Shown in pieces: positions 23,475 through 31,317 of a DNA stretch of 33,173 nt. Each line of letters opens with the position of its first letter. Within the stretch, counting starts at the first letter, position 1. The translations under genes were made by a program, and so were the position numbers. The DNA comes from Leptolyngbyaceae cyanobacterium M33_DOE_097 (GTDB lineage Bacteria > Cyanobacteriota > Cyanobacteriia > Leptolyngbyales > Leptolyngbyaceae), in NCBI GenBank assembly GCA_015296075.1, contig DVDV01000154.1:1-33173 (forward strand), in the 5' to 3' direction. The notes under the pieces are model-generated. The model was not told the DNA's origin and made no database searches. It saw only the letters and a list, made by a program, of their open reading frames with translations.

Positions 23475-23630
23475 TTAGTTACTCGCATAACTTGTTAACG
23501 CAGTTAAACGAGGATGAAATAAGTACTCGCTATAGTCAGCAAGTTGATCAAAACCCAGAAAACTGAAGGCAAGCTCAAGCACCATCCAAACAGATACTTT
23601 GACGATCAGTGTTTTCCACTTCACTTGCAT
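23475..23630 (-). CDS. 51-residue membrane protein co-transcribed with the diiron oxygenase
   Basis: A small gene with an unusually good ribosome binding site, GGGAGGTGA, 5-6 bases before the ATG at 23630. The frame is open further upstream, but this start is clearly best. The product has one membrane span (about residues 7-26, LIVKVSVWMVLELAFSFLG) followed by FDQLADYSEYLFHPR. The DLADYSEF-type motif after a single span recalls a set of small uncharacterised cyanobacterial proteins, from memory and unverified. It ends 24 bases before the diiron oxygenase start, suggesting an operon and perhaps membrane recruitment or regulation of the oxygenase. Confidence 0.6.
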   Translation of the reverse strand: MQVKWKTLIVKVSVWMVLELAFSFLGFDQLADYSEYLFHPRLTALTSYASN

Positions 23631-23856
23631 TTGGCTCACCTCCCAGCTCAAGGGATTTGCTCTAGCAAGAGGACAATGTTTAGTGAGTCTCAAACTTCAA
23701 TTTCAAATGAAAATGAATGGTTCTAATTTGAAGTTGAGGTATCAACCACCTGTCTTTTGCTGTTCTGTTATCAGGTTATTGGGGCAGGTGTCCTGAAACC
23801 GTCCACAAAGCATCCGCAAATCATTTGATGTCTGAAAAATAAGTGCAGCCTTGATT

Positions 23857-24381
23857 TCAGGTAGAAGACGGAGGCAGAATGAGCCGCGATCGCCAAATCC
23901 GAACGAAGGGTACGTTTGTTTTGCGATGAGCTTGGCGCACAATCTCGGTACTCGCTGCATTAAAAACACAGAGCGATCGCTGCCCATCGAGCGAAATAAA
24001 CGACCCCAATTGCTGAATATTGTGTTGCTGAAAGCAGGGCCTAGCTGCTTCTTTTGCAGTATCCCACTGCTCAGTTGTCAACGGTGTGCCACAGTCCACT
24101 TCTGACAGGATTGGAGTTTGACAACCAGAACTGGTAATTGCCTCTTGATTTTGCCACAGCTCGGCTCGCCAAACCAAATCAAAAGAGATCTCAGCCTGAC
24201 GGCATGCATCACGGACTAAATCGGCGTAGGCTGCATCAAATTCACAGATTGAGCGGGTTCCATCTACTGCAAAAAAAGAACGAACCCAGGTGATGCTACG
24301 CGCTACAAAGCAAGGGTGCAGAGTTGTATCAAACTCTTTGAGGGGTGGGTCATAGCTGCAATTGAGCAGGATGCGTGCCAT
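23857..24381 (-). CDS. Tandem DUF4242-type protein, second paralogue
   Basis: The 174 residues are two copies of a domain of about 80 residues. The conserved block appears twice: GTRSICEFDAAYADLVRDAC then FDLVWRAELW (residues 41-76), and GQRSLCVFNAASTEIVRQAH then FVRIWRSRLI (133-168). The pattern D-G-x-R-S-x-C-x-F-x-A, VR and VWxAxL is that of DUF4242 proteins, the group that includes the nickel-binding SCO4226. Each copy keeps the Cys of RSICxF. No signal peptide, so cytosolic. It starts 24 bases after its paralogue and shares its architecture, indicating gene duplication after domain duplication. Role unknown; coupling to the upstream ATPase regulator suggests a signalling or metal-sensing partner. 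Confidence 0.72.
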   Translation of the reverse strand: MARILLNCSYDPPLKEFDTTLHPCFVARSITWVRSFFAVDGTRSICEFDAAYADLVRDACRQAEISFDLVWRAELWQNQEAITSSGCQTPILSEVDCGTPLTTEQWDTAKEAARPCFQQHNIQQLGSFISLDGQRSLCVFNAASTEIVRQAHRKTNVPFVRIWRSRLILPPSST

Positions 24382-24405: not shown

Positions 24406-24948
24406 TCAATGGGGGCGAATCAAAGTTGCTTTCCAAATCTGCTGAAACGGCATATTAGTCGTACGGTAGAGCGATCGCACCGCCTCTGCACTGACAGCCG
24501 AAAATACGCAAATAGAATGATTTCCATCCAGCGAGACGACTGAGCAGAGGGATTGAATATTCATATTTTGAAAGTACCCTGCTGCCTGCTGTTTAGCGGC
24601 TTCATCCACGGCTCTCGTCACAGGTTGGGGGTAGTCTACTTCAGCTACTATCACCGAGCTGCCTTGAGGCCGATTGTTTAGCGCTTGATCAACCCACAGT
24701 TCTGCTGCCCAAACTCGCTGAAAGGGCATTCTGGCTTGTCGGCAGGCGGTTCGTACCAACTCCATTGCAGGGACTTCAAATACACAAATCGAGCGATCGC
24801 CATTCTCCGACACGAGCGAGTTGTGCCAATGCACCTGGCGTGATTCTAAGCAGTCGTCTAGCGAATGATTGACCACCATCCAGCGATCGAAGGTCATGGG
24901 GACTGGTAGCTCCGGCGAAAAGGTGCGTTCCAAAACAACCAGTTTCAT
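24406..24948 (-). CDS. Tandem DUF4242-type protein, first paralogue
   Basis: A 180-residue protein with two DUF4242-type domains. GDRSICVFEVPAMELVRTAC then FQRVWAAELW (50-85) and GNHSICVFSAVSAEAVRSLY then FQQIWKATLI (142-177) are the two conserved blocks. The N-terminus VVLERTFSPELPVP matches the family's usual first strand (V-E-R-x-F). Its ATG overlaps the stop of the ATPase regulator gene as ATGA (24945-24948), with AGAGG just upstream inside that gene, so translation is probably coupled. The second copy has His in place of the Arg before Ser. The paralogue follows 24 bases later. Metal binding is possible by analogy with SCO4226 but not shown here. Confidence 0.75.
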   Translation of the reverse strand: MKLVVLERTFSPELPVPMTFDRWMVVNHSLDDCLESRQVHWHNSLVSENGDRSICVFEVPAMELVRTACRQARMPFQRVWAAELWVDQALNNRPQGSSVIVAEVDYPQPVTRAVDEAAKQQAAGYFQNMNIQSLCSVVSLDGNHSICVFSAVSAEAVRSLYRTTNMPFQQIWKATLIRPH

Positions 24949-27900
24949 AGGGCAACCTCTGCAAGTTGAACTATTCGTTGTTGAGCGCGGGCACTCAGGG
25001 GCTGGTCTTTTAGACGTTTTTGAAGCTCAGTTAGATGCTGTTTTGGGCAGTCCACATTTCCCATTTGGCAACTTGCTTGAATAATGACTGACCAGGCCAG
25101 TGCAATTTCACTGGGGTTGCTAACCACCTGAGCCGCTTCCAGGGCTTCTTCAGCCCGCGCGATCGCCCGTTGCAAATCTCCCTGGTGCAAGTCCCACTCG
25201 GCGGCCAGCGTCTGGATATAAGCCAACATCCGAGGTGAATCAATCTGTTTGAGAATCTGGCACGATCGCTCCAGTTCGGTAGCGGCATTCGTTTCTTGCA
25301 GTAAATAGTGAATGGTTGCATCCAACGCAGCTGCATGGGGCGCTTCACTGCCTTCCCCCATTTGCGCCGACACCCGAATCAGCTCACTACAGTAATCGAG
25401 CGCAAGTGTAAGCTGCCCCGCCTCTAGCTCTAGCATGACTAGATTCATCAAGCAGGTACACTCACGCCAGTGGTCTTGGGCGACCTGGGCCATCTGCCAG
25501 CTTTGCCGCAGCAGCGATCGCCCCGCCTCGACCTGACCTTGATAGCGGTAGACGCAGCCCAACCCAAAGGGAATGTCAATCGCCTCTAAACCAAGGCGAT
25601 CAGCGATCGATTGAGCCTCCAGCAAAAGGGCTTCGGCACGGGTCATTTCGCGCCCTATCTCGGCTAAACAAGAGCCAGAGTGAGCCAGCATGTACATGGT
25701 TGTGGCAGGGCTAGCCTTTCTGCCTTGCTCCGCCGCCCGAAATGAATAGTGTTGTACTTCTGTCAATTTTCCGTGGTCATAACTCAATGCAATCAACGCT
25801 TCTAGCCCGGCGGCTTCTTCGTCTTTGAGTTGCAATGCGGCGGCTTCTTGAATCAGTTGGTGTAATTCTTGTTGTAAGCCAGCAACCTGATTTTTAGGCA
25901 CGCCTGCCCTAACGTACAGTTTCAGCAAGCCCAAGTGCAGCCCAATCCGAGATTTCGCTTCCAGGTACTGACAATGGCGCATTCCTCGTTGCGTCAGTTC
26001 AGCCGCTTCTGCGTAAGCAAACACCCTCAAGCAACGCTCAGCCGCTAATAAAGAAGCAGACGCCGCTAAGGTATGGTCGCTACCGAGATCGGCATGGTGT
26101 GCGACATCGTTGATCAATTGGGTGGTCGGTGAAGCAATCGCATGAAGGGCCTGCGCGATGTGGGTATGCACTAATTTGCGGCGTGGCTCGGAAAGCTGCT
26201 CGTAGGCAACCTGCCGCACGATGTCATGGGCAAAGTCATAGGAAGCTTCACCGTTGACCGTGTTGCCAGGACGAATAATGCCGTGTTGCTCAAGTTGCTC
26301 GATCGCCCCCAACAAGCGCGGCAAGGGCAGATCCATCACGCGAGCCAAAATCGTAGGGTTAAAATTTCGACCTAACGCAGCCGCCCACAACACTAAATCG
26401 CGGGTACCTTCGTCTAGCTGCACCAAGCGGCTTTGAATCAAGGTTTCTAACGTTTCCGGCGTGCCTCGATTAGAGGGGAGCTGAGTGCGGGCAATTTCAA
26501 GCGCAAACAGCGGATTGCCACCACTGTTTGCAAACACCTGATCGCCTCCAGCCTGACACCCAACCGCTTGCGCCAGCGCGATCGTCTGAGCCTGGTCGAG
26601 CGGTGCTAACGAGACAGTTTTGATCCGATGCTCCCGATGCAATACCTGAATTAATTTATACGCCGCTAGATTCGTCTCGATCTCGTGCTTACGGGTAGCA
26701 CAGGCAAACCAGATGGGCCGCTGCTGATGAAACAGGCGCACCACGTAGTGCAAAAAGGCGATCGACGTTTCATCAAGCCACTGAATGTCATCAAGCACAA
26801 CTAAGACGGGCGATGTTTGACTCAGTTGCACCATAAACTGCGCAGCCATATCGAACAGTCGTCCCCGGTTGAGGTTTGCGGATGAATCTGCATTTAACAC
26901 CAGCGATCGCAGTTCATCTAAAAATTCTGCTGCCCCGATCGCCTCAAAAGCATCAACCCAAATCCCATAAGGGCGTAGCATTTCGGCTTCAAATCCACGC
27001 CCCCAAAGGACGTAGCCCCCCGTCTGTTGAAACGTTCGCACCAGTTCTTCGAGCAGGCGGGTCTTACCAATGCCCGGTTCGCCAATCAAACAGAACACCT
27101 CTGTATCGACGCGATCGCGACAGGTTGTGAGCCATTCTTGCATTGCTTTCCACTCGGCTGCTCGCCCAATTAACGGCAACTCAGAAACTGATCGCGGAAA
27201 ATGGCTTGCCAACAGAAACTCAGACGTTGCAGGTTGAGGATGAATTGCCTCGCCACTGATGGAGGCGACTGCCGCACACTCAGCCACAGGTGGTGCATCC
27301 TCTAGCGTCAATAGTTCCTCATAGAGCTTACACGTTGTCGGGCTGGGGTTGACCCCCAACTCTTCCTGCAAGGTGGTCATGCATTGGTGATAAACCCGTA
27401 AGGCACTGGCGCGATCGCCCTCCTGCGCATGGAGCCGCATCAGGTGGCAATACGCAGGCTCATACAAGGGATCGATGCGCTGCAACTGTTGGGCATAAGC
27501 GATCGCCGCCCGGGTGCTGGTCTGCGTTGTAAGGTGAGTAATTAACGTATCTAGACCCGCGATCGCCTGTTGCCGGAGTTGCTCTCGGCAGGGCACAATC
27601 CAATCGTCGTAACAACTTGGCAGCAAATCCCCCTGATACAGCTTCACCGCTTGCTCAAGCGTCTGAATTTGGGCTGCTGAAACGGTTGCCAATGGCTGCT
27701 CGGTCAGTTGCATCCCGGCTTGAAACTCTGCAACATCTAACCCGCAGTCTTTGTTTAGCACCCACTGAATTGTTTTAGTCTCCACCCGAAGCCAGCGATC
27801 AATGTCAGGAATCGCTTGCTTTAGATCGTGCAAACGTCGCCGCAACCGTGCTTTTGCATCGCTATCTGTTGCTTCAGGCCAAAGCTTTACAGCAATTTGT

Positions 27901-28043
27901 TGCCGCGCTTGAGGTGTATCACGGTGCAGTAAGATAAACGCTAATAATGCCTGCAACCGTTCCGAATTAACCGCTGTAATCGGAACGTTGTTCGCAATTA
28001 GGCAAAATTCCCCAAATAGTCGAATATGGAGATTTGTAGACAC
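24945..28043 (-). CDS. AfsR/SARP-type regulator: winged helix, BTAD, AAA-like ATPase, TPR
   Basis: A 1032-residue STAND-type signalling ATPase. Residues 5-95 form an OmpR/SARP-like winged helix (LHIRLFGEF, LLAFILLHRDTPQARQQI, LWPEA, ARLRRRLHDLKQ). Residues 102-245 are the bacterial transcriptional activator domain (CYDDWIV, EPAYCHLMRLHAQEGDRASA, EELGVNPSPTT, then LYEELL). The ATPase begins near 285, with Walker A GEPGIGKT (321-328) and Walker B VLVVLDDI (413-420) followed by QWLDE. The rest, to 1032, is helical and TPR-like. There is no C-terminal LuxR helix-turn-helix. Such proteins activate transcription on ligand sensing and ATP binding. A perfect 12-bp inverted repeat overlaps its leader. 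It heads a coupled operon with two tandem DUF4242-type genes. Confidence 0.88.
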   Translation of the reverse strand: MSTNLHIRLFGEFCLIANNVPITAVNSERLQALLAFILLHRDTPQARQQIAVKLWPEATDSDAKARLRRRLHDLKQAIPDIDRWLRVETKTIQWVLNKDCGLDVAEFQAGMQLTEQPLATVSAAQIQTLEQAVKLYQGDLLPSCYDDWIVPCREQLRQQAIAGLDTLITHLTTQTSTRAAIAYAQQLQRIDPLYEPAYCHLMRLHAQEGDRASALRVYHQCMTTLQEELGVNPSPTTCKLYEELLTLEDAPPVAECAAVASISGEAIHPQPATSEFLLASHFPRSVSELPLIGRAAEWKAMQEWLTTCRDRVDTEVFCLIGEPGIGKTRLLEELVRTFQQTGGYVLWGRGFEAEMLRPYGIWVDAFEAIGAAEFLDELRSLVLNADSSANLNRGRLFDMAAQFMVQLSQTSPVLVVLDDIQWLDETSIAFLHYVVRLFHQQRPIWFACATRKHEIETNLAAYKLIQVLHREHRIKTVSLAPLDQAQTIALAQAVGCQAGGDQVFANSGGNPLFALEIARTQLPSNRGTPETLETLIQSRLVQLDEGTRDLVLWAAALGRNFNPTILARVMDLPLPRLLGAIEQLEQHGIIRPGNTVNGEASYDFAHDIVRQVAYEQLSEPRRKLVHTHIAQALHAIASPTTQLINDVAHHADLGSDHTLAASASLLAAERCLRVFAYAEAAELTQRGMRHCQYLEAKSRIGLHLGLLKLYVRAGVPKNQVAGLQQELHQLIQEAAALQLKDEEAAGLEALIALSYDHGKLTEVQHYSFRAAEQGRKASPATTMYMLAHSGSCLAEIGREMTRAEALLLEAQSIADRLGLEAIDIPFGLGCVYRYQGQVEAGRSLLRQSWQMAQVAQDHWRECTCLMNLVMLELEAGQLTLALDYCSELIRVSAQMGEGSEAPHAAALDATIHYLLQETNAATELERSCQILKQIDSPRMLAYIQTLAAEWDLHQGDLQRAIARAEEALEAAQVVSNPSEIALAWSVIIQASCQMGNVDCPKQHLTELQKRLKDQPLSARAQQRIVQLAEVAL

Positions 28044-28092: not shown

Positions 28093-28506
28093 GAATTTGA
28101 TCTTTTACGTCACACAATAGCGATCGAGAAACTTAAGCTTTTGGAGTAGAATACCCAATTTGGGTGACTCGCACTGTAAAGAAGTTTTAACAGTCTTTCT
28201 GTTTCAATCGGTGCTGCGTATAAATTGGCTATAAATGCTGACCTACACCGTTTTAATTAAAAAAGACCTAAAGATGAAATTAGAGAAAGACATCTAGAGC
28301 TGTTTATTTGTTTAGATTGAGATGAATTAAAATCCATCTGTTAAGAAAAAATAAGTAGTTCTATTTCAATTACAGGGATAATGTTTTTAACCTCTAAATA
28401 ATCATCATTCAAATGAACTACTACTGACTACTGCTTGTCGTCTACAGGTTGACTTGATTAAGTTCCAAGTCTACAAGCGAAAATTGTGCATCTACCGAAT
28501 AGAAAA

Positions 28507-31317
28507 ATGAGAGATTTGGGTTTATCTGGTGACAGCTTAACGGCTGCGACTTCGGGGCAGCAGCGCGTCAACGAGGTCTTTATCTCTTACTCAAGACGGG
28601 ATAAAGCCTTTGTTCAAAAATTAGACAACGCCTTCCGCGATGTTGATCAAGATCCTTGGATTGATTGGGATGATATTCAACCAGCAGAAGACTGGTGGGC
28701 ATCCATTCAACGAGGCATTGAGGGAGCCAGCACTTTTGTTTTCATCATTAGCCCAGACTCAGTTAGTTCAAAAGTCTGCTTTCAAGAAGTAGACTATGCG
28801 GTCAGCTTGAATAAGCGTCTGATCCCAGTGTTATTACGAGATGGTTTTGAGATGGACGCTATTCATCCCAAAGTTAGTGCCCATAACTGGATCTTTTTTC
28901 GTGAGACAGATGACTTTAACCATGCCTTTCAAACCTTATTAACCGCGATTGAAACTGATCTTGACTACGCTCGCGCTCATACTCGGTTACTGACTCGCGC
29001 GATCGAGTGGAAGCAAAAAGAAGAACATGAAAGTTTCTTATTAAGAGGTAAAGACTTAGAAGATGCAGAGCAATGGATCACCGATGCCGTTAATCAGAAA
29101 CCGACACCCACTCCCTTACAATGTGACTACATTAATACCAGTCGTAAGTTTGAAGCCTCAGAGCAAAAGGCTAAAATTCGATCGCAGCGAATTGCTTTAG
29201 GGTTGATTGGGGCAGGGTTTGTTGCGGCTCTTATTTCAGCGTTGGTTGCGATGCAACAGCGGCAGCAAGCCGAAACCGAACGCATCAACGCCGAAATTAA
29301 CTCACGCAGTTGGGCGATCGAAAGTTGGTTTGCCGCAGGTTTAGAGTTAGATGCTCTCACCGAAGGCGTTCGTATGGGGCAACAGATACAAGCGGCGGGC
29401 GATCGCGTTCAACCTGAAACACGCTTACGGGCGATCGCGGCTTTACGAGATGTCGTCGATCAGGCACATTTGCAAAATAGTCTGGGAGGTGAGGGCGCGT
29501 TTTATGCCGTGCAACTGAGTCCCGATGGTCAAACGCTGGCAGCTGCCAATAACGATGGCAAACTCTATCTGTGGAACCGCCAGGGTAAATTGCTGCGCAC
29601 TTTTGAAGGACATACAGGCAAAACTTACGACGTTCGCTTTAGCCCTGATGGTCAAATTCTTGCTTCTGCGGGTAGTGATGGCACGCTCCGGTTGTGGAAC
29701 CTCAACGGACAGAACTTAAAAACCATCAAAGGCCATACAGGTAAGGTGTTGAGTGTGGCGTTTAGCCCCGATGGCGAGCGGCTAGCCTCGGCTGGTGAAG
29801 ATAAAACAATTCGGCTGTGGAATCGTGCGGGACAAGCAATTGCCGCCTTTCAAGGTCATGGGGATGCGGTCAATGCGATTCAATTTAGTCCTGATCAGCA
29901 AACGCTGCTCTCTGGTAGTCGCGATCGCAGTGTCAAACTTTGGAGTCTTTCTGGTCAGGTGCGCAAGACCTTTAGCGGACATCGTGCCCCCGTTCAGACC
30001 GTTCGCATTAGCCCTGATGGCAAAGCAATGGCATCTGGTAGTGAAGATGGAATGGTGATTGTTTGGACGACGGATGGACGTTTAAAGCGCAACTTCAAAG
30101 CGCACCAAAAGCCAATCCGCAGCATTGAGTTTCATCCTGATAGTCAACGGTTTCTGACCGCAGGGGATGACACAGCGTTTAAACTCTGGAGCTTAGAAGG
30201 TGCGTTGTTGGAAACCTTCCAGGGGCATGGTAACTCCGTTTCTGGCATTGATTTCAGTGGAGATGGAGCGACGATCGCTTCTGCCAGTGGCGATCGCACC
30301 GTCAAACTCTGGCAAAGTGCCAATTTGCAATCCAAACAAATTAAACAGCACCAGGGAATTGTCAATGCGGTGGCTTTTAGTCCTGACGGTTCGTTGTTTG
30401 CTTCCGCCAGTGATGACAAAACCATTCAACTCTGGAGCTTGCCAGGAAAAGCTCTCAAGACGCTCACGAATGGCACCTATCCGTTTACGAGCTTACAATT
30501 TAGCCCTGACAGTCAATATCTACTAGCGGGTAGTCGTGATGGTAGGGTGGCACTCTGGCAAACGGATAGTCAAGCAATGAAACTGATTGGTCAACCGATA
30601 GCGTCTATTGAGCGCAACCGAACTGTCTGGCCTGTTGCCTTTAGTCCTGATGGTCGAGCGATCGCGACGACTCGTGCTGACTACTCCATTCAGCTTTGGG
30701 ATAGAGACGGTAAACCCTTGCGACAACTCAAAGGCCATCAAGCGGCCGTTCAACAAATTGCCTTTAGTCCAGACAATCAACTTATCGCTTCCGCAAGCCA
30801 GGATCAAACCGTTCGCCTCTGGAACTCCGTCGGTCAGCTCTTGCAGACTTTAACCGATCACACTGACGCTGTCTTGGATGTCAGCTTTAGCCCTGATGGT
30901 AATTACCTGGCCAGTTCGGCGGCTGATAACACGATTCGAGTGTGGCAGCGGGAGGGCGATCGCTTTCGCTTGTTGAATACGCTTGACGGCTACAGCAGCG
31001 CCATTACCAGCCTTGCGTTTAGCCCTGATAACCAGGTGTTAGCCAGCGGTGGCGCTGACCAAACGGTGCGCTTGTGGGACTTTATTAAAGGCAAACAGGT
31101 AAAGGTGATGCGTGGGCATGTTGCCGGGATCAGAGACATTGCTTTTAACCCTGGTGGGGATTTACTCGCCTCCGCGGGGGACGACAACCGCCTCATGCTG
31201 TGGGATTTTAATCTCGATCGCCTGATGCAAGAGGGATGCTTCTGGCTTAAGGATTATCTGGGAAATAGCCCCGAAGTTAAATCCAGCGATCGCCAACTCT
31301 GCAAAAACGTCTACTAA
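28507..31317 (+). CDS. TIR domain-transmembrane-WD40 protein with 14 WD repeats
   Basis: Numbering from the GTG at 28486: the TIR domain (30-155) has EVFISYSRRDKAFV, then IIEGAS-type FVFIISPDSV and VCFQEVDYA. Glu101 there lies where NADase TIRs keep their catalytic Glu. Next comes a linker (160-230, HTRLLTRAIEW and FLLRGKDLEDAEQWI) common in cyanobacterial TIR-WD40 proteins. One membrane span (235-256) follows, then a helical stretch and fourteen WD40 repeats (336-920), enough for two seven-bladed propellers. Most repeats read FSPDG...LASA..D.T.RLW. The TIR should be cytosolic; the span probably anchors the protein. The ATG at 28507 (936 residues) is preferred, though neither start has a ribosome binding site. 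Divergent from the ATPase operon. A sensing or immune role is inferred. Confidence 0.9.
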   Translation: MRDLGLSGDSLTAATSGQQRVNEVFISYSRRDKAFVQKLDNAFRDVDQDPWIDWDDIQPAEDWWASIQRGIEGASTFVFIISPDSVSSKVCFQEVDYAVSLNKRLIPVLLRDGFEMDAIHPKVSAHNWIFFRETDDFNHAFQTLLTAIETDLDYARAHTRLLTRAIEWKQKEEHESFLLRGKDLEDAEQWITDAVNQKPTPTPLQCDYINTSRKFEASEQKAKIRSQRIALGLIGAGFVAALISALVAMQQRQQAETERINAEINSRSWAIESWFAAGLELDALTEGVRMGQQIQAAGDRVQPETRLRAIAALRDVVDQAHLQNSLGGEGAFYAVQLSPDGQTLAAANNDGKLYLWNRQGKLLRTFEGHTGKTYDVRFSPDGQILASAGSDGTLRLWNLNGQNLKTIKGHTGKVLSVAFSPDGERLASAGEDKTIRLWNRAGQAIAAFQGHGDAVNAIQFSPDQQTLLSGSRDRSVKLWSLSGQVRKTFSGHRAPVQTVRISPDGKAMASGSEDGMVIVWTTDGRLKRNFKAHQKPIRSIEFHPDSQRFLTAGDDTAFKLWSLEGALLETFQGHGNSVSGIDFSGDGATIASASGDRTVKLWQSANLQSKQIKQHQGIVNAVAFSPDGSLFASASDDKTIQLWSLPGKALKTLTNGTYPFTSLQFSPDSQYLLAGSRDGRVALWQTDSQAMKLIGQPIASIERNRTVWPVAFSPDGRAIATTRADYSIQLWDRDGKPLRQLKGHQAAVQQIAFSPDNQLIASASQDQTVRLWNSVGQLLQTLTDHTDAVLDVSFSPDGNYLASSAADNTIRVWQREGDRFRLLNTLDGYSSAITSLAFSPDNQVLASGGADQTVRLWDFIKGKQVKVMRGHVAGIRDIAFNPGGDLLASAGDDNRLMLWDFNLDRLMQEGCFWLKDYLGNSPEVKSSDRQLCKNVY

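What the first reader, a model, noticed from the sequence alone, without database searches (positions are those of the whole stretch)
24406..28043. Coupled operon of an AfsR/SARP ATPase with two tandem-duplicated DUF4242-type proteins
Seen directly: the ATPase gene overlaps the next gene by ATGA, and the second paralogue follows after 24 bases. Both small proteins contain two copies of the same RS(I/L)CxF...VWxAxL block, so four copies descend from one domain by domain then gene duplication. Known: SARP/AfsR ATPases sense and activate; DUF4242 includes a nickel-binding protein. Inference: the DUF4242 pair is the sensor or output of the ATPase, an undescribed signalling module. The paired domains could form a pseudo-tetrameric ring of metal or small-molecule sites.
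Basis: partly seen in the sequence, partly recalled or inferred. Interest (0 to 1): 0.75.

Follow-up and report, generated by a model that had tools for sequence, protein, structure and literature searches.

The report
Cyanobacterial gene switch with barrel-protein partner
A large ATP-driven gene activator in a cyanobacterium nearly always travels with a small barrel-shaped partner protein, which probably tells it when to act, and both sit next to a recognisable DNA landing site in front of the genes they are likely to switch on.

Summary
The trio is real. A 1032-aa SARP(BTAD)-STAND(AAA_16)-TPR regulator overlaps, by ATGA, a two-domain PF14026 (ex-DUF4242) protein; a second copy follows 24 bases later. 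Linkage is strongly conserved: in 97 genomes, 14 of 16 homologous ATPase loci have PF14026 beside them, and the two without it have broken ATPases. Across phyla PF14026 also sits near STAND/TPR proteins with other outputs (LuxR, nucleotide cyclase, probably kinase) or is fused to cyclase or AraC domains, so it looks like the constant, input-side component. Beyond the finding, I located a SARP-type operator (three 11-bp direct repeats, 8 bp before a -10-like box) just after the trio, ahead of a diiron-oxidase-like gene. Equivalent arrays occur in 22 of 29 module loci and none of 215 other loci. In all 21 loci with both, the operator lies after the PF14026 gene, which thus belongs with the regulator, not the targets. 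AlphaFold gives one dimeric-type alpha/beta barrel per two-domain protein, not a pseudo-tetrameric ring. SCO4226's nickel ligand His76 is Trp here, so the nickel reading is not supported. Best reading: PF14026 is the ligand-binding regulatory partner of a MalT/AfsR-like activator. Physical contact, ligand and sign are inferred.

The parts
24945..28043 (-). SARP-STAND-TPR regulator, 1032 aa: SARP DNA-binding + BTAD (about 1-245), linker 248-289, STAND NTPase (about 290-605), TPR arm (about 607-1031)
   Evidence: Pfam BTAD and AAA_16 over cut-off; Walker A, Walker B and GGNP residues invariant in 11 homologues; model pLDDT 79.2, pTM 0.49; 8k60 AfsR Z 21.6 over 245 residues, 1hz4 MalT TPR Z 22.2 over 353; best Foldseek hit 6mfv STAND-TPR, E 1.7e-13
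24406..24948 (-). D1, two-domain PF14026 protein, 180 aa, start overlaps ATPase stop (ATGA)
   Evidence: PF14026 57.2 bits; AlphaFold pLDDT 94.4, pTM 0.88; 4oi6 (SCO4226) Z 8.0, rmsd 2.4 over 81 residues
23857..24381 (-). D2, second two-domain PF14026 protein, 174 aa, 24 bases after D1
   Evidence: PF14026 59.8 bits; orthologue after D1 in G017 C8 = L074
23783..23815 (-). Predicted SARP operator: GGATGCTTTGT GGACGGTTTCA GGACACCTGCC (three 11-bp units)
   Evidence: PWM 34.7 bits (this site helped train the PWM); arrays in the same order in L064, L065, L074, L077, L108; exact degenerate pattern once in the own genome
23773..23778 (-). -10-like hexamer TAACCT, 8 bp after the last heptamer
   Evidence: TAnnnT at +8 or +9 after the last heptamer in 19 of 26 sites
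23475..23630 (-). Small ORF, 51 aa, hydrophobic, between operator and diiron gene; possible first gene of the target transcript
   Evidence: similar 51-aa ORF in L077 (within 2260-2520, -); not seen in L064 and L065
22518..23450 (-). Predicted target: 310-aa ferritin-like diiron (AurF-like) oxidase
   Evidence: PF11583 19.2 bits, below its 29.6 cut-off, so the name is tentative; homologues near the module at 74-82% identity in L064, L065, L074, L077, L108 and 55% in L094

Best explanation
The trio is the regulator half of a local activation circuit. The ATPase is a MalT/AfsR-type STAND activator: its SARP head binds three 11-bp direct repeats 8-9 bp before a -10 box and recruits RNA polymerase, its NTPase core switches from a closed ADP form to an open ATP form, and its TPR arm receives the signal. 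D1 and D2 each fold as one alpha/beta barrel and act as dedicated, co-translated regulatory partners: they bind a small ligand and dock on the TPR/NTPase part to gate the switch. The output in this genome is the adjacent diiron-oxidase-like gene. Shown: gene structure, families, conserved linkage, exchange of outputs around STAND-TPR plus PF14026, operator arrays, gene order. Inferred: DNA binding, physical contact, ligand binding, sign of control. I lean to the ligand-loaded barrel being the trigger (about 55:45 over a MalY-like restrainer).
For: Linkage: 14 of 16 ATPase loci in 97 genomes, 12 of 14 without the window's own genome. In three phylum samples all 7 full-length or contig-cut ATPases have PF14026 near, but 4 of these lie in genomes chosen as centres (own genome 2, G453, G454); the 3 independent ones are G019, G064 (also among the 97) and G973. 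Gene order is swapped in L098, L102, L103. Other outputs near PF14026: SAM-cyclase, LuxR, kinase-TPR; fusions to Guanylate_cyc and HTH_AraC. PF14026 loci against control windows: 36 of 85 against 1 of 74 with STAND, cyclase or SARP, p 4e-11. PF14026 subfamily follows partner type: 20 changes against 63.4 shuffled, 0 of 200 as low. Operators in 22 of 29 module loci, 0 of 215 other loci, at 11-bp spacing; -10-like box at fixed distance in 19 of 26 sites. Folds.
Against: No test of direct contact, ligand or DNA binding. Many PF14026 genes have no such neighbour (49 of 85 survey loci), and four cyanobacterial ones sit in a sulfonate-type transporter operon, so the family is not only a STAND partner; several LuxR-STAND neighbours are divergent or one gene away. 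G017 C8 keeps D1 and D2 with a broken ATPase, and L085 has PF14026 and operator with no ATPase nearby. One partial Pseudomonadota ATPase (G630 C13, 383 bits) has no PF14026 match on its contig. Seven of 29 module loci show no operator (L069, L070, L073, L078, L083, L091, L097), nor do L037 and L075 or the proteobacterial and gemmatimonad SARP-STAND loci, which were among the controls. Ten of the 22 operator loci trained the PWM.
Confidence: 0.6

Rival explanations
1. PF14026 proteins are the output: small metal-sequestering proteins whose synthesis the ATPase controls, as proposed for SCO4226.
For: SCO4226 binds nickel and its gene is nickel-induced (PMC4186839: abstract; Results part 1 and closing section); same fold; 49 of 85 survey PF14026 loci show no STAND, cyclase or SARP neighbour.
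Against: In all 21 loci with both elements the operator lies after the PF14026 gene and reads away from it; nickel ligand His76 is Trp in 38 of 39; PF14026 is fused to cyclase and AraC outputs and pairs with cyclases, which cannot drive transcription directly.
Confidence: 0.17
2. PF14026 proteins are enzymes (alpha/beta-barrel monooxygenase-like) in the same small pathway as the target genes; the ATPase senses the pathway's compound by itself.
For: The fold is shared with PenE monooxygenase, sulfur oxygenase reductase and HmoB; neighbours are methyltransferase, acetyltransferase, diiron oxidase, homocysteine S-methyltransferase.
Against: Neighbouring targets change between loci while the pair stays; fusion to output domains; subfamily tracks regulator type; overlap or close spacing with the regulator gene in most measured loci.
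Confidence: 0.17
3. Linkage is incidental: neighbouring genes moved together with no functional tie.
For: Module loci are scattered (60 of 97 genomes have some ATPase match, but only 16 such loci), so mobility is likely; one is on a Nostoc plasmid.
Against: Linkage holds in three phyla with gene order swapped, and signalling genes are near 36 of 85 PF14026 loci against 1 of 74 controls.
Confidence: 0.03

Closest known systems
Large SARPs and SARP-LALs (AfsR; PimR, SanG, FilR)
   Same: SARP domain + NTPase + C-terminal region; operators of direct repeats every 11 or 22 bp, the 3' repeat 8 bp from the -10 element (passages of PMC10936776, and PMC10972967)
   Different: Not an AfsR orthologue; cyanobacterial; AAA_16-type core; dedicated PF14026 partner, which does not appear in the passages I saw
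MalT with its inhibitory partners MalY and MalK (and TPR-STAND PH0952)
   Same: STAND core plus MalT-like TPR arm; control of a STAND by separate proteins, MalY by blocking oligomerisation (PMC10427625 abstract; PMC6468293 abstract and section 26)
   Different: MalT has a C-terminal LuxR output; its partners are metabolic enzymes or a transporter subunit, not PF14026 barrels, and are not translationally coupled to it (recalled)
SCO4226 (PF14026 founder, Streptomyces coelicolor)
   Same: Pfam family and domain fold; Cys51-equivalent (41 of 41) and Trp41-equivalent (40 of 41) kept
   Different: Two domains in one chain; Ni-1 ligand His76 is Trp; extra Cys in helix 1 (41 of 41 first domains); linked to a STAND regulator

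Membership tests
PF14026 SCO4226-like | HMM score over the curated cut-off | tested here: met
   57.2 and 59.8 bits against 28.5
PF14026 SCO4226-like | ferredoxin-like fold as in 4oi3/4oi6 | tested here: met
   pLDDT 94.4; 4oi6 Z 8.0, rmsd 2.4, 81 of 81 residues aligned to domain 1; the tool calls Z near 8 middling
SCO4226 nickel-binding protein | Ni-1 ligands Asp43 and His76 (Ser46 not tested) | tested here: not met
   His76 column is Trp in 38 of 39 ungapped first domains; the column two after Trp41, taken as Asp43, is Y/R/H/F/N/G in 41, never Asp
SCO4226 nickel-binding protein | binds nickel | not testable with these tools
   needs protein
SARP family (large) | N-terminal SARP DNA-binding domain + BTAD | tested here: met
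   PF03704 87.1 bits; AfsR 8k60 Z 21.6 over 245 residues, 24% identity
SARP family (large) | operators of direct repeats every 11 or 22 bp, 3' repeat about 8 bp from -10 | tested here: met
   criterion; sequence layout only, binding untested
AfsR equivalog NF053617 | score over its cut-off | tested here: not met
   42.1 against 1430 bits
STAND NTPases with TPR sensor | Walker A/B, GxP-type motif, C-terminal TPR arm | tested here: met
   motif residues invariant in the 11 sequences (motif names recalled); 6mfv best Foldseek hit; 1hz4 Z 22.2 over 353
STAND NTPases with TPR sensor | ligand- and ATP-driven oligomerisation | not testable with these tools
   needs biochemistry

The most novel reading that the evidence does not exclude
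PF14026 is a general, exchangeable signal-input module for bacterial signal transducers: a free or fused alpha/beta barrel that feeds STAND-TPR proteins with SARP, LuxR, cyclase or kinase outputs, and cyclases or AraC proteins directly. The nickel function would be a side branch. The window holds a cyanobacterial version with its operator and target in place.
Probability: 0.5. Interest if true: 0.75.

Novelty: new variant of a known kind. Interest (0 to 1): 0.62.

Why it matters
What large SARPs and most bacterial STAND regulators sense is largely unknown (recalled). A co-encoded barrel partner shared by STANDs with different outputs would name the missing input component and give a family-wide handle for finding ligands. 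It re-reads PF14026, which Pfam names nickel-responsive, as a signalling domain. The operator gives a ready-made reporter in cyanobacteria: with trio, promoter and target in about 5.5 kb the model can be tested directly.

Tried and rejected
Nickel sensing was rejected as the default because the ligand His is Trp. The pseudo-tetrameric ring was rejected because one chain already forms the barrel. A profile of the double-domain proteins did not find SCO4226 in the PDB sequence set, nor did D1 alone; a single-domain relative did, E 0.0067. Homocysteine S-methyltransferase genes: no GGAAC-type array within 250 bases in 6, though arrays stand further upstream, ahead of other genes, in L068, L084, L085 and L087. 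Operator in front of the window's own ATPase: none at 20 bits or more. Genome-wide regulon: the loose pattern gave the window site plus one 2-mismatch hit, against 2 for the reversed-pattern control, so no further target is claimed. The excess at spacing 13 and part of that at 22 upstream of ATPases comes from local repeats in L070 (29 of 37 and 19 of 36) and was not used. The second own-genome locus (C351, L078) has no operator in its 8.3 kb. The divergent TIR-WD40 gene (first 330 aa), the GntR gene and the 21781-22398 gene have no match in 35 loci. Actinomycetota and Chloroflexota were not surveyed: no genome handle there. Of 34 plasmid hits six were opened; L110 carries no annotation and was not analysed.

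One gemmatimonad PF14026 row below cut-off (G930, 22.9 bits) was dropped, leaving 37 of 38. The 85 survey loci include L098 and L099 of the two centre genomes, which were found through their PF14026 genes; without them 34 of 83. The 74 control windows come from long contigs of the same genomes. The 215 operator controls overlap in part and are mostly not cyanobacterial; the 29 cyanobacterial ones make 129 kb. Duplicate fetches of one contig (L086=L068, L090=L073, L092=L067) were left out of the 29; L037 and L075 were scanned only and have none (22 of 31 with them). Same-genome pairs are not independent: L093/L096, L085/L095, L065/L066, window/L078.
Full report
OBSERVATION. D1 and D2 each match PF14026 in two stretches (57.2 and 59.8 bits, cut-off 28.5); the ATPase matches BTAD and AAA_16 over cut-off. 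The interval given omits D2 (23857-24381).

LINKAGE, ATPASE TO PF14026. Among 97 genomes, the window's own included, I count 16 loci with the homologous ATPase, split genes counted once; 14 have PF14026 beside it on the same strand (12 of 14 without the own genome). The two without (G081 C144, G028 C67) carry a truncated ATPase and one split between two frames. One further broken ATPase (G017 C8) keeps D1 and D2. Phylum samples with the ATPase alignment: in 386 cyanobacterial genomes 4 loci over 900 bits, 4 of 4 with PF14026 adjacent, but 2 are the own genome's and the other two (G019, G064) are also among the 97; in 121 Gemmatimonadota 2 of 2 full-length, one of them the centre genome, itself found through PF14026; in 378 Pseudomonadota 1 of 1 full-length, again the centre genome. 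So only G019, G064 and G973 are independent there. Of two partial Pseudomonadota matches (421 and 383 bits) one has PF14026 about 2 kb away and one has no PF14026 match on its contig. The genome-collection scan, made with PF14026, gave 25 loci; 15 of 16 cyanobacterial and 5 of 9 other loci hold the ATPase. In Aquisalimonas and Nitrococcus a single-domain PF14026 gene lies 15-21 bases upstream of the ATPase instead of downstream. Distances vary: in five measured loci the genes overlap by 4 bases, while in L083 and L089 about 1.6 kb separates them. ATPase and PF14026 divergence correlate over 18 loci (r 0.80, 0 of 2000 permutations as high), which shows co-inheritance only.

LINKAGE, PF14026 TO SIGNALLING PROTEINS IN GENERAL. 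Plasmid records show PF14026 directly after a SARP-AAA_16 protein in Mesorhizobium and Nostoc, after SAM-Guanylate_cyc-AAA_16-TPR proteins in Rhizobium and Ruegeria, and after an AAA_16-TPR-LuxR protein in Deinococcus. Surveys added AAA_16-LuxR proteins (same strand in L235; one gene between in L230; divergent in L200, L217, L226) and a Ser/Thr kinase-TPR protein with a weak AAA_16 match directly upstream in L194, and single-ORF fusions PF14026-Guanylate_cyc and PF14026-AraC. Of 85 PF14026 loci (48 Pseudomonadota, 37 Gemmatimonadota), 36 hold a STAND, cyclase or SARP protein within the fetched stretch (mostly about 10 kb), against 1 of 74 windows taken elsewhere in the same genomes (p 4e-11). 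The domain models were partly built from these loci, so they may favour them. The other 49 loci have no such neighbour, and four cyanobacterial loci of another subfamily (L079-L082) belong to a sulfonate-type transporter operon. On a tree of first domains, partner type needs 20 changes against 63.4 when shuffled (near-copies inflate this, and few branches are resolved).

STRUCTURE. D1 is predicted with pLDDT 94.4. Both domains together align with single-chain alpha/beta-barrel proteins (ovorubin Z 11.8, sulfur oxygenase reductase Z 9.6, PenE Z 9.5), and the first domain with SCO4226 (4oi6, Z 8.0, rmsd 2.4 over 81). So one protein equals one SCO4226-type dimer. The ATPase model (pLDDT 79.2) matches AfsR's SARP part (8k60, Z 21.6 over 245) and MalT's TPR domain (1hz4, Z 22.2 over 353); the best Foldseek hit is the TPR-STAND PH0952 (6mfv, E 1.7e-13). 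No conclusion is drawn on relative domain placement (pTM 0.49).

RESIDUES. In ATPase-linked first domains a helix-1 Cys (41 of 41), the family-wide strand Cys (41 of 41) and a Trp (38 of 39 ungapped) are kept. The Trp stands where SCO4226 has the nickel ligand His76 (alignment; ligands from PMC4186839, Results part 1 read). In the other partner classes the first Cys is Val, Ile, Ala or similar. Second domains are looser (Cys 19 of 26, Cys 18 of 26, Trp 25 of 25 ungapped).

OPERATOR AND TARGETS. Counting 7-base direct repeats upstream of genes linked to the module showed an excess at 11-bp spacing (methyltransferase set 62 against 2.8 expected, diiron set 22 against 1.6). The sites are three or four units of the type GGAACGCTTTG or GGACGGTTCCC. 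A two-matrix scan finds arrays of 20 bits or more in 22 of 29 module loci, in 0 of 215 other loci (1.47 Mb, overlapping in part; the 216th, L285, is the window site itself), and in no module locus at spacings 8, 9, 10, 12, 13 or 14 (two loci at 22). Ten loci trained the matrices, leaving 12 of 19 untrained. A TAnnnT box lies 8 or 9 bases after the last heptamer in 19 of 26 sites, a feature not used in training. This is the published SARP promoter layout: repeats every 11 or 22 bp, the 3' one 8 bp from -10 (passage of PMC10936776), and PimR has three heptamers with 4-base spacers (passage of PMC10972967). In all 21 loci that hold both, no operator reads into the PF14026 or ATPase gene; on their strand it always lies after PF14026. 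Predicted targets differ: diiron oxidase-like (window clade, L094), Rv2258c-like methyltransferase, GNAT, PPC-domain, FG-GAP and OsmC proteins, and some without a family. In the window the array is at 23783-23815(-), followed by a 51-aa ORF and the diiron gene 333 bases on.

MECHANISM. By analogy with MalT, which separate proteins hold in the resting state (PMC10427625 abstract; PMC6468293 abstract and section 26), I propose that PF14026 barrels are the ligand-bearing regulatory partners of the STAND switch. The argument: outputs change while STAND-TPR and PF14026 stay; PF14026 fuses to output domains; it is closely coupled to the regulator gene and lies outside the predicted target transcript. 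Contact, ligand and sign are not shown.

NOVELTY. Full-text searches for DUF4242 (3 papers), SCO4226 (6), PF14026 (10, nine with malaria titles and one on domain identification, none opened), a STAND/cyclase/SARP/LuxR combination (1) and SARP/BTAD/cyanobacteria (3) listed no paper that by title, start of abstract or the passages seen links PF14026 to STAND or SARP regulators. The library holds open-licence PMC papers only, so absence is not proof. The parts are known kinds; the partnership and the cyanobacterial SARP operators are new as far as searched.

Noticed in passing
28486-31317 (+): Divergent neighbour: a 943-aa protein with 14 WD40 stretches and an N-terminal region weakly matching TIR-bearing anti-phage models; its first 330 aa have no match in 35 module loci.
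   Followed up: partly
23475-23630 (-): A 51-aa hydrophobic ORF with a near twin in L077, between operator and diiron gene.
   Followed up: partly
L078 (own genome, contig C351) 5565-8182 (-): Second copy of the module in the same genome: ATPase cut by the contig end plus a single-domain PF14026 gene, no operator found.
   Followed up: partly
L079-L082: Another cyanobacterial two-domain PF14026 clade lies in an operon with NMT1-type ABC transporter genes and an acyl-CoA dehydrogenase-like gene; possible sulfonate link.
   Followed up: no
L097 1426-7932 (+): A 2168-aa ATPase relative in which a WD40 block sits between the SARP and STAND parts, still beside a PF14026 gene.
   Followed up: no
L108 8438-14554: On a Nostoc plasmid, genes of recurring sizes separate the module from its operator and diiron gene, yet both remain on one plasmid.
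   Followed up: no
L103 9586-10641 (+): Nitrococcus has a distant homologue (32%) of the cyanobacterial target methyltransferase directly after its ATPase, hinting at an old target link.
   Followed up: no
L237 4951-9503 (-): PF14026 protein overlapping the end of a 1319-aa protein that has no Pfam match at 0.001, with a SARP-STAND protein nearby.
   Followed up: no
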